Assembly: GCA_005239845.1 (NCBI GenBank)
Contig: SBBD01000152.1
Span: 1-6,968 of the forward strand
Length of the DNA: 6,968 bases
From: an archaeon
GTDB taxonomy: Archaea; Micrarchaeota; Micrarchaeia; Norongarragalinales; SBBD01
Direction: 5' to 3'
Made by a program: the position numbers and the translations under genes. Shown in pieces: positions 2,891 through 4,282 of this stretch. Below the pieces are notes generated by a model. It saw only the letters and a program-made list of their open reading frames with translations. It searched no databases and was not told the DNA's origin. Numbering within the stretch: the first letter of the stretch is position 1; the number at the start of each line of letters is the position of its first letter.

Positions 2891-4282
2891 TTACTCGGAA
2901 GGGTAATGGTTGTTGCCCAGTTCAATTTTAATGCGGGAAAGCAGGCGGTCTTTCGCCTTGCCGGGCTTTAAGGCGTGCTTCAGCACGTCATACCAGGAAC
3001 GGGCCGGAATGATTTGGATGGCTTTCCGTTGGCTCGCGTCCAGCACCAAGTCGTCCATGCTCGAGGCAGGAACAATGGCTTTCGTGATGCCCGCTTCCAA
3101 GCAGGCCTCTATTTTTGCCGTAACACCTCCAATCGGAAGCACTTCGCCTCTCACGGAAAGCGAGCCGGTCATGCCCACGCTCTGGTCAATAGGCACTTCC
3201 TCTAAAGCGGAAATGACGGCCGTGGCCACGGAAATGCTGGCGCTGTCGCCCTCGACGCCTTCATAGGTCTGCAGGAACTGGATGTGGATGTCGTAAGCGG
3301 AAATGTCTTTGCCGATGTGCTTCTTGATGAGCGCGGACACGTTTTCCACGGCTTCCTTGGCAATGTCCCCCAGCTTTCCAGTGGCGATGATGCGGCCTTC
3401 CTCCTTGCTCGCGGAAGGCGCCACTTCCGCCACGATGGGAAGAATGATGCCGGAATCGCCCATGACGGCAAGCCCGTTGACTCTTCCGACCTCGAAGCCC
3501 TCCGTAAGAAAAATGCGATAGTCCTTCTTGACGTCAATGAATTGCTGGGCGCCTTGTTGCTCCAAGGTACGGGCGAGTTTCTTGGCCTGTCGCACGTGAA
3601 CGGCGGAAACGAAGGAAGCGTTTTCCTCTTTCGCCAAGTCTCCCGCGGCGCGGATCAAGCCCCCCAGTTCGCGGAGCTTCAAGGTCAAGCGGTTCTTGCG
3701 GCCCGCGCGCTTCTTTGCTTCATAAAGAATCTCTTGGATGGCTCCGGAATCGAAGTGGGGAATTTTGGCGTCCTTCTTGATTTCCTGCGCCATGAACTGC
3801 ACGATCTTGAACTCATTTTCCGGAGTGTCCGGCATGCTTTCCTCCATGTAGACTTCATAGCCGTAGCCCCGAATCCGGGAACGCAAGGCAGGATGCATGC
3901 GCCGCAAGTCCACGTAGTTTCCTGCCGCCACCAGCACGAAGTCGCAGGGAACCGGGTCCGTCTTCACCTGCGCGCCGGAAGACATTTCGCTCTGCCCCGT
4001 GATGCTGAACTTTTTCTCTTGAAGCGCCGTCAAGAGCTCTTGCTGGGCCTTGGGGCGCAAGGCGGAGACCTCGTCAATGAATAGCACGCCCTTGTGGGCG
4101 CGGTGAATGGCGCCTGCCTCGATGCGCAAGTGCGCGGGAGTGCCCAAGCCTCCTGAATTGTGCACGAGGACGCCTTCCGCGAAATAGTTTCCCGTAGAGG
4201 TCGTGGCGTTGTAAACCAATCCTTGGAAGGGCCTTGAATTCTTGGAAAGAAGGAAGGCCTCTTTCGGTTTAAAGCGGGCCAT
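2891..4282 (-). CDS. lonB: LonB protease C-terminal half fused behind a split-intein C-fragment
   Basis: 463 residues. Residues 1-42 are an intein C-fragment ending NYFAEGVLVHN. From Ser43 the protein is archaeal LonB: SGGLGTPAH, Walker B (VLFIDEV, 66-72), GQSEMSSGA (96-104), sensor 1 (VAAGN, 118-122), arginine finger region (HPALRSRIRGYG, 130-141), sensor 2 region (RKNRLTLKLRELGG), then the protease domain with catalytic Ser347 in GDSAS and Lys390 in GGVTAKIEA. LonB is an ATP-dependent, membrane-anchored AAA+ protease; here the substrate-side N-terminal region, Walker A and the transmembrane helices (about 200 residues) are absent. An in-frame TGA at 4307-4309 and a TATA box at 4313-4320 show that the gene starts here. 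All visible catalytic residues are intact, so decay is unlikely. The N-half must be encoded outside this window and joined by trans-splicing; this is inference from the intein end. Confidence 0.93.
   Translation of the reverse strand: MARFKPKEAFLLSKNSRPFQGLVYNATTSTGNYFAEGVLVHNSGGLGTPAHLRIEAGAIHRAHKGVLFIDEVSALRPKAQQELLTALQEKKFSITGQSEMSSGAQVKTDPVPCDFVLVAAGNYVDLRRMHPALRSRIRGYGYEVYMEESMPDTPENEFKIVQFMAQEIKKDAKIPHFDSGAIQEILYEAKKRAGRKNRLTLKLRELGGLIRAAGDLAKEENASFVSAVHVRQAKKLARTLEQQGAQQFIDVKKDYRIFLTEGFEVGRVNGLAVMGDSGIILPIVAEVAPSASKEEGRIIATGKLGDIAKEAVENVSALIKKHIGKDISAYDIHIQFLQTYEGVEGDSASISVATAVISALEEVPIDQSVGMTGSLSVRGEVLPIGGVTAKIEACLEAGITKAIVPASSMDDLVLDASQRKAIQIIPARSWYDVLKHALKPGKAKDRLLSRIKIELGNNHYPSE
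4157..4282 (-). other. Intein C-terminal fragment (IntC), 42 codons
   Basis: The segment has a basic N-terminal region (MARFKPKEAF), then block F/G motifs of Hint-fold inteins: GLVYNATTST, GNYFAEGV, and LVHN with penultimate His41 and terminal Asn42. The +1 extein residue is Ser43 (codon 4154-4156), a valid class 1 nucleophile. Its length is close to that of known natural IntC pieces such as cyanobacterial DnaE (about 36). Asp, common after VY in block F, is Asn here (VYN). The junction falls at HDPFQ|SGGLG when compared with thermococcal LonB as I remember it; those proteins are known to carry inteins, but I cannot confirm from memory that the site is identical. Confidence 0.88.

What the first reader, a model, noticed from the sequence alone, without database searches (positions are those of the whole stretch)
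2891..4282. Naturally split intein in LonB: the protease C-half is a separate gene led by an IntC fragment
Residues 1-42 end in NYFAEGVLVHN and are followed without a gap by Ser43 and the LonB sequence SGGLGTPAH. The reading frame is closed by TGA at 4307-4309 only eight codons before the ATG, a TATA box sits at 4313-4320, and the upstream neighbour is on the other strand, so no IntN or N-extein is adjacent. All downstream protease residues (Walker B, sensor 1, Ser347, Lys390) are intact. The simplest explanation is a trans-splicing LonB with its N-half plus IntN encoded elsewhere. Known natural split inteins occur in cyanobacterial DnaE, nanoarchaeal DNA polymerase and several phage or metagenomic genes. 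I do not know of a described split LonB.
Basis: partly seen in the sequence, partly recalled or inferred. Interest (0 to 1): 0.93.

Follow-up and report, generated by a model that had tools for sequence, protein, structure and literature searches.

The report
Split protease rejoined by split intein
In this archaeon the membrane protease LonB is encoded as two separate genes whose facing ends carry the two halves of an intein, which would likely join the two pieces into one working enzyme; ten related genomes show the same arrangement.

Summary
The finding holds, and the missing partner is in the same genome. The window ORF (2891-4282, minus) is a 42-residue C-terminal intein fragment followed directly by Ser43 and the LonB C-half. 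Contig C39 of the same assembly encodes the LonB N-half, ending in HDPFQ and running into a Ser1-led intein N-fragment. No contiguous LonB was found there; a LonB-like paralogue exists, and the two complete relatives of it tested lack the protease domain. In 301 genomes of the class, 26 carry this intein by my threshold: split into separate genes in 11, cut in tandem in 1, contiguous in 14; all 11 split genomes hold both halves. In JAHJQN010000008.1 both lie on one 241-kb contig, 89 kb apart, which argues against misassembly. All 11 are Ser1/Ser+1 and group together in the intein tree (96/96), though their LonB hosts do not. One relative keeps an endonuclease ORF just upstream of its C-half. 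Trans-splicing itself is inferred. My literature searches found no described split LonB.

The parts
2891..4282 (-). gene for IntC + LonB C-half (463 aa and stop)
   Evidence: TIGR00764 at residues 41-452
4157..4282 (-). IntC, residues 1-42, ending LVHN (C-terminal Asn42, penultimate His41)
   Evidence: aligned with IntC of relatives
4154..4156 (-). Ser43, the +1 nucleophile and first residue of the C-extein
   Evidence: codon TCA follows AAT; role as nucleophile inferred from the family
2894..4156 (-). LonB C-extein: second part of the AAA+ module and the S16 protease domain
   Evidence: 3k1j_A, residues 42-455, E 8.5e-168
4070..4087 (-). Walker B VLFIDE, residues 66-71
3242..3244 (-). catalytic Ser347 (GDSAS)
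   Evidence: the assignment as catalytic is by family knowledge
3113..3115 (-). catalytic Lys390
   Evidence: the assignment as catalytic is by family knowledge
4307..4309 (-). in-frame TGA that closes the frame upstream of the ATG
4313..4320 (-). TATA-like box TTTATAAA upstream of the C-half
   Evidence: promoter function inferred
4743..5750 (-). RNase Z-like gene; its relatives lie beside lonB in 4 of 5 intein-less relatives fetched

Best explanation
LonB of this micrarchaeon is encoded in two separate genes, N-half plus IntN on contig C39 and IntC plus C-half in this window, and the two products likely join by protein trans-splicing into one membrane-bound ATP-dependent protease. Shown by sequence: both halves exist as intact, separate reading frames; they meet at the same peptide bond as intein-less LonB (HDPFQ|SGGLG); the intein fragments carry Ser1, block B TxxH, C-terminal His-Asn and Ser+1; the order of parts matches contiguous inteins at the same site in relatives. 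Inferred: IntN and IntC fold together into a Hint domain, Ser1 and Ser+1 carry out an all-oxyester (cysteine-less) class 1 reaction, Asn42 cyclises, and the ligated LonB assembles as an oligomer. The N-half alone has the Walker A and the hydrophobic stretches but no Walker B or protease; the C-half alone has Walker B and protease but no Walker A or anchor. So without splicing, or at least assembly, the cell would likely have no LonB.
For: Partner in the same genome: C39:3705-4949(+), 415 aa, Walker A at residue 93, hydrophobic 19-residue windows starting near 160 and 184, HDPFQ ending at 252, IntN from Ser253 with TTPEH. It is 63% identical to G001's N-half, whose own C-half is 83% identical to the window's. 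Co-occurrence: among 301 genomes, a separate IntC-LonB gene in 11 and a separate LonB-IntN gene in the same 11; a search with G001's IntN hit 18 of 301, the 11 plus 7 contiguous inteins. G001 (JAHJQN010000008.1) has both on one 241,420-bp contig about 89 kb apart. Position 1 Ser, TxxH, C-terminal Asn, Ser+1, Walker A, Walker B and GDSAS are present in 11 of 11 split genomes. Larger database, listed best 120 of each search, the own proteins included: 120 of 120 N-half entries have S, C or T right after the junction and no C-extein, 116 of 120 show T[PSGK]xH; 55 of 120 C-half entries are short with N|SGGLG, of which two have truncated starts, one looks like a cut contiguous intein and one is G023's tandem gene. 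Exact contig-length matches pair 11 of 63 C-side entries with an N-half, about 0.3 expected. Hint fold: a contiguous Ser1 mini-intein at this site (G107) is modelled at pLDDT 87.7, under 50 only at 122-136, the split position; its best PDB matches are inteins. Purifying selection in the pair G006/G026: dN/dS 0.22 IntN, 0.05 IntC.
Against: No splicing, transcript or peptide data. The own genome is 70% complete in 195 contigs and both contigs are short (5.3 and 7.0 kb), so a further lonB could be missing. IntN scores 16.9-19 bits, below the intein_Nterm cut-off of 24.5. The own IntN frame is 163 aa, against 114-129 in the other ten; its last ~36 codons run antisense through a neighbouring ORF, and whether the tail hinders splicing is unknown. 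In four other split genomes the penultimate His is replaced (Ser twice, Phe, Lys). In the pair G057/G144 IntN has dN/dS 0.50; synonymous sites are near saturation in that pair and in G000/G001.
Confidence: 0.91

Rival explanations
1. Assembly artefact: the gene is really contiguous with an intein between the halves, and binning or assembly broke it.
For: The own assembly is fragmented (195 contigs), and in G023 the two frames overlap at ATGATG, so a one-base error could create that split. In G020 and G025 the N-half ends 389 and 74 bases from its contig end.
Against: The window C-half has its own stop, a TATA-like box and an opposite-strand ORF 66 bases upstream. The N-half ends in a stop inside an ORF on the opposite strand that also follows the N-half in G001 and G002. 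Ten other genomes show the split, G001 on one 241-kb contig with halves 89 kb apart in opposite orientation.
Confidence: 0.03
2. Split but not spliced: the halves associate without ligation, or the gene pair is decaying and LonB is lost.
For: Penultimate His is replaced in 4 of 11 split genomes; IntN evolves faster than the exteins, dN/dS 0.18-0.50 in three pairs against 0.07-0.20 for exteins where defined; a LonB-like AAA+ paralogue remains.
Against: Ser1, TxxH, Asn and Ser+1 are present in 11 of 11; G006/G026 IntC dN/dS is 0.05 and the exteins 0.07; the window's protease residues are intact; the two complete paralogues tested lack Lon_C; LonB is essential in Haloferax volcanii (PMC4343526, passages).
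Confidence: 0.06
3. The C-half is a stand-alone protease with a short N-terminal tail that merely resembles IntC; the C39 gene is unrelated to it.
For: IntC is only 42 residues, and one database entry of a close relative is called from an internal start at MHN, without IntC (P0004).
Against: It aligns with blocks F/G of contiguous inteins at the same site, and separate N-halves ending in IntN occur in the same 11 of 301 genomes. The C-half lacks Walker A.
Confidence: 0.02

Closest known systems
Pyrococcus abyssi Lon protease intein (O'Brien et al. 2010; seen only as a reference title in PMC4031507)
   Same: An intein in archaeal Lon whose splicing mechanism has been studied.
   Different: Recalled as a contiguous cis intein; its insertion site was not compared here. 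The window's is split into two genes.
Aes123 PolB1 and LCGC14 PolB2 cysteine-less split inteins (PMC11923092, PMC12707363; passages read)
   Same: Ser or Thr only at 1 and +1, Aes IntN 120 aa and IntC 39 aa, split at the endonuclease position; the G107 mini-intein model matches the fused Aes structure 9hth.
   Different: Those lie in PolB-type DNA polymerases of phages or metagenomes; here the host is a membrane AAA+ protease of archaea, with genes 89 kb apart in G001.
Cyanobacterial DnaE split inteins (mostly recalled; Ssp and Npu DnaE are named in passages of PMC4031507 and PMC11923092)
   Same: Two separate chromosomal genes of a housekeeping protein joined by trans-splicing at a typical split site.
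   Different: DnaE uses Cys1/Cys+1 (recalled) and is soluble; LonB is Ser1/Ser+1 and anchored through the N-half only.
Nanoarchaeum equitans split DNA polymerase intein (recalled)
   Same: Natural split intein in a DPANN archaeon.
   Different: One gene in one organism as far as I recall; the LonB split recurs in 11 of 301 genomes of this class, in 4 family codes.
Fractured genes of Dassa et al. 2009 (recalled; seen only as a reference title, the paper is not held)
   Same: Split intein halves with a separate homing-endonuclease gene nearby, as in G020.
   Different: The endonuclease in G020 is homologous to the endonuclease of contiguous LonB inteins (E 4e-41 to G009), not a new endonuclease family.

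Membership tests
Naturally split intein (class 1) | IntN and IntC encoded on separate genes, each fused to one half of one host protein | tested here: met
   11 of 11 split genomes hold both
Naturally split intein (class 1) | Nucleophile at position 1, block B TxxH, C-terminal Asn, nucleophile at +1 | tested here: met
   Ser253, TTPEH, His41-Asn42, Ser43; 11 of 11 split genomes
Naturally split intein (class 1) | Split at the endonuclease insertion position | tested here: met
   Contiguous homologues carry an endonuclease-sized insert or a low-confidence loop there
Naturally split intein (class 1) | Hint fold | tested here: inconclusive
   Modelled only for the contiguous homologue G107 (pLDDT 87.7), best PDB matches inteins; the two-chain complex was not modelled
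Naturally split intein (class 1) | Trans-splicing activity | not testable with these tools
   Needs expression or proteomics
Cysteine-less split intein | Only Ser/Thr at 1 and +1 | tested here: met
   11 of 11 split genomes have Ser1 and Ser+1; no Cys in IntN of 8 of 11, including the window's genome
Archaeal LonB protease (S16) | Walker A, two membrane helices, Walker B, LonB lid, Ser-Lys protease over the two halves | tested here: met
   TIGR00764 positions 4-197 on the N-half, 195-607 on the C-half; helices judged by hydrophobicity only
Archaeal LonB protease (S16) | Proteolytic activity | not testable with these tools
   Needs a biochemical assay
Fractured genes (split intein with a free-standing endonuclease between the halves) | Endonuclease gene beside the halves | tested here: not met
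   The own genome's two endonuclease hits lie on C42 and C105, not on C39 or C112; beside a half in 1 of 11 split genomes (G020)

The most novel reading that the evidence does not exclude
The split LonB intein began as a mobile cassette, N-half-IntN / endonuclease gene / IntC-C-half, that homes into intein-less lonB as a unit and so turns an essential protease into an obligate trans-spliced one in lineage after lineage. The endonuclease is then lost and rearrangements scatter the halves, which locks the split in place. It is a major split-intein system of DPANN archaea, with over a hundred N-half clusters in the listed hits alone, filed as plain 'ATP-binding protein' or Lon.
Probability: 0.4. 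Interest if true: 0.86.

Novelty: new member of a known kind. Interest (0 to 1): 0.74.

Why it matters
It would be a naturally trans-spliced membrane protease and a natural split-intein family with many members in these archaea. LonB is essential in Haloferax volcanii (PMC4343526, passages), so the cell may depend on trans-splicing for its membrane ATP-dependent protease. Tandem, endonuclease-bearing, contiguous and scattered forms at one site in one class make the steps of gene fission by an intein directly comparable. Cysteine-less split inteins are rare and wanted as tools (PMC11923092, PMC12707363, passages).

Tried and rejected
Misassembly was considered and rejected on the 241-kb contig of G001 and the other split genomes. 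A redundant contiguous LonB was sought: the second LonB-like hit, C3:13-621, belongs to a paralogue; the two complete relatives tested, in G026 and G016, have the AAA+ part but no Lon_C domain, while the own copy runs off its contig, so its end was not seen. G023's tandem form could be a one-base error and is not counted among the 11. G108 and G113 looked short but are contiguous inteins at contig ends. G036 was left out of the intein tree because its junction was not recovered by my pattern; G108, G113 and G115 were left out of the C-extein tree because the C-extein was cut or not found. Only 14 intein-less genomes, of those whose loci I had fetched, are in that tree. A remaining lonB endonuclease was sought in 16 genomes (13 of 16 matched): best in G020, G009 and G023, then G016 C5 (1.7e-18) and the own genome's C42 (1e-17); none of the hits outside G020, G009 and G023 lies on a contig with a LonB half, and C42 is an intein in an RNA-polymerase-like gene (gene named from recall). 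Whether the three f1 split inteins form a clade in the intein tree was not decided (AU p 0.2); the five f5 ones as a clade were weakly rejected (p 0.025). Records named Diapherotrites, ainarchaeum or Woesearchaeota occur among the hits, but such names may be wrong (L042, named ainarchaeum, has the same coordinates as G113 of this class), so I make no claim about other phyla. In one search I entered 63 of the 120 C-side entries, leaving out 56 intein-less ones and P0051; one of the 11 pairs (P0058/P0146) joins different intein types and may be chance, and P0119 shows no IntC.

Full report
WHAT IS THERE. The window is one whole contig (C112) of a 1.19-Mb, 70%-complete assembly in 195 contigs; 23 of 26 named relatives are titled Micrarchaeota. 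The ORF at 2891-4282 (-) encodes 463 aa. Residues 41-452 match LonB positions 195-607 of 608 (657 bits, cut-off 516.6) and 42-455 match the Lon structure 3k1j from residue 180 on. Residues 1-42 are an IntC: block F/G like ...VYNATTSTGNYFAEGVLVHN, then Ser43. The frame is closed eight codons upstream by TGA, a TTTATAAA box lies at 4313-4320, and the next ORF runs the other way. Walker B, Ser347 and Lys390 are in place.

THE PARTNER. A LonB profile search of the own genome found positions 4-198 on contig C39 (197 bits), and an intein N-terminal profile match directly after it in the same frame (19 bits, below its cut-off of 24.5). The gene, C39:3705-4949 (+), is 415 aa: Walker A at 93, hydrophobic windows starting near 160 and 184, HDPFQ ending at 252, then SLAPETKLES... 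and TTPEH. The fragment is 163 aa; in the other ten it is 114-129 aa, and the extra tail runs antisense through a neighbouring ORF, which by its sequence I take to be initiation factor 5A (recalled, not tested). No other LonB N- or C-half was found. A LonB-like paralogue on C3 runs off its contig; two complete relatives of it, in G026 and G016, hold the AAA+ part but no Lon_C domain.

IS IT MORE THAN ONE GENOME? In 11 of the 26 the C-half is a gene of its own and a LonB N-half with IntN lies elsewhere: G000, G001, G002, G006, G016, G020, G021, G025, G026, G057, G144. In G023 the gene is cut in tandem, the stop of the first frame overlapping the start of the second. In 14 the intein is contiguous: eight measured at 432-497 aa, four mini-inteins of 165-189 aa, and G036 and G113 not measured. 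A separate search with G001's IntN found 18 of 301 genomes: the same 11 plus 7 contiguous ones. In G001, JAHJQN010000008.1, C-half 52689-54047 (-) and N-half 143400-144557 (+) share one 241,420-bp contig.

WIDER DATABASE. Against 5.8 billion proteins, the best 120 of 3807 N-half hits were listed (own protein included); in 120 of 120 the junction is followed by Ser (87), Cys (30) or Thr (3) with no C-extein, and 116 of 120 carry T[PSGK]xH. Of the best 120 of 8000 C-half hits, 55 are short and have Asn before SGGLG, 56 are intein-less and 9 other; among the 55 are the own protein, two with truncated starts, one that looks like a cut contiguous intein (P0045) and G023's tandem gene (P0022). Where sources name them, the N-half is mostly 'ATP-binding protein' or a Lon-like name, the C-half LonB or Lon-like. 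Eleven of 63 C-side entries share an exact contig length with an N-half entry, against about 0.3 by shifted lengths; one of these pairs joins different intein types.

HOW IT WOULD WORK. All 11 split inteins have Ser1, TxxH, C-terminal Asn and Ser+1; eight of 11 IntN have no cysteine, the own one included. The penultimate His is kept in 7 of 11. A contiguous Ser1 mini-intein at the same site (G107) is modelled at mean pLDDT 87.7, pTM 0.82, under 50 only at 122-136, where the others are split or hold the endonuclease. Foldseek's best matches are inteins, among them Pho RadA (4e2t, 6.7e-10) and the fused cysteine-less Aes123 PolB1 split intein (9hth, 6.9e-9). From this I infer class 1 trans-splicing with oxyester intermediates. 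N-half and C-half share out the ATPase motifs, the anchor and the protease, so ligation, or at least assembly, would be needed for LonB activity. Archaeal LonB is essential in Haloferax volcanii (PMC4343526, passages); essentiality here is inferred. Selection: G006/G026 dN/dS is 0.07 N-extein, 0.22 IntN, 0.05 IntC, 0.07 C-extein; G000/G001 0.11 N-extein, 0.18 IntN, 0.33 IntC; G057/G144 0.20 N-extein, 0.50 IntN, 0.07 C-extein; the missing values were undefined, and the last two pairs are near saturation at synonymous sites.

HOW IT AROSE. In the C-extein tree (37 rows) the split rows need 6 changes, at least 3 forced by well-supported branches, and holding the 11 together is rejected (p-AU 1.13e-67). 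In the intein tree (25 rows, 171 columns, midpoint root) the 11 are one side of a branch, 96/96, in 95% of 200 bootstrap trees. G020 sits with intein-less G008 and G024 (100/100), its N-half keeps the RNase Z flank and its C-half the opposite flank of G008's lonB, and upstream of the C-half lies a same-strand endonuclease ORF homologous to the endonuclease of G009's LonB intein (33%, E 4e-41), open at the contig end. The two G020 contigs are not joined in the assembly, so the tandem order is inferred. That fits a split cassette with its own endonuclease which moved as a unit; in the other ten split genomes no lonB-type endonuclease was found on the contigs of the halves, though G025's N-half lies 74 bases from its contig end. 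In f5 the N-half has the RNase Z cluster beside it in 3 of 5 genomes and that cluster's neighbour in the other 2; in f1, the window's family, it is the C-half that lies near RNase Z, 3 of 3. Vertical descent with many losses is not excluded.

WHAT IS KNOWN. Searches of the paper library for split intein with LonB and with Micrarchaeota gave 0 and 0 papers. Broader searches were judged from their listings except for passages read in PMC4031507, PMC3229294, PMC11766414, PMC11923092 and PMC12707363. Intein with DPANN and split gave 3 papers, listing only; intein with Micrarchaeota 3 and with Diapherotrites 1, of which I read the intein passages of two: one names intein-mediated trans-splicing only as a function missing in Mia14 (PMC5498576), the other is general (PMC6125680). 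A Lon intein of Pyrococcus abyssi is in print (reference title in PMC4031507). Cysteine-less split inteins are called rare, with the named ones in DNA polymerases (PMC11923092, PMC12707363, passages). The library lacks most subscription papers and the fractured-genes paper, so a split LonB could be described there. I file it as a new member of a known kind, the natural split inteins, in a new host protein as far as these searches show.

Noticed in passing
window 2259-2413 (-): A tRNA that Rfam scores at 54.7 bits over 155 bases, so probably with an intron; ARAGORN reports none.
   Followed up: partly
window 1639-2205 (-): A ParE-like toxin ORF (1639-1914, PF05016) directly after a 96-aa ORF without a Pfam match (1915-2205), possibly a toxin-antitoxin pair.
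   Followed up: partly
window 2460-2780 (-): A ribosomal protein S26e-like gene (PF01283, E 3.3e-10) downstream of the C-half.
   Followed up: partly
L002:1-1365 (-), L172:3889-5307 (+), L168:4725-6128 (-): A second LonB-like AAA+ gene occurs in many relatives; the G026 copy has CxxC pairs between its AAA+ parts, and the two complete copies tested lack the protease domain. It lies within about 3 kb of the split N-half in G006, G016, G021, G026.
   Followed up: partly
G000 contigs C182, C83, C88, C148, C105, C146: Six further intein N-terminal matches over the cut-off in the same genome, all in long frames (818-1269 aa): a genome rich in inteins.
   Followed up: no
L209:2-1282 (+), own contig C42: An endonuclease-bearing intein end (LTGN, then CGLIKSLAL) in an RNA-polymerase-like gene (named from recall), cut by the contig start; its N-part was not sought.
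   Followed up: partly
P0142 (database protein, 1780-bp contig): A LonB N-half whose IntN breaks off before block B and continues into a stretch matched by PF01974 (tRNA endonuclease, meaning recalled): a fused remnant or an assembly join.
   Followed up: partly
L185:4650-4850 (G023): IntN plus endonuclease frame ends in TGA overlapping the ATGATG start of the IntC gene: a tandem, possibly translationally coupled split, or a one-base error.
   Followed up: partly
P0004 (database protein, 421 aa): A C-half called from an internal Met at MHN|SGGLG, so the automatic start call probably removed IntC; split inteins may be hidden by start choice.
   Followed up: no
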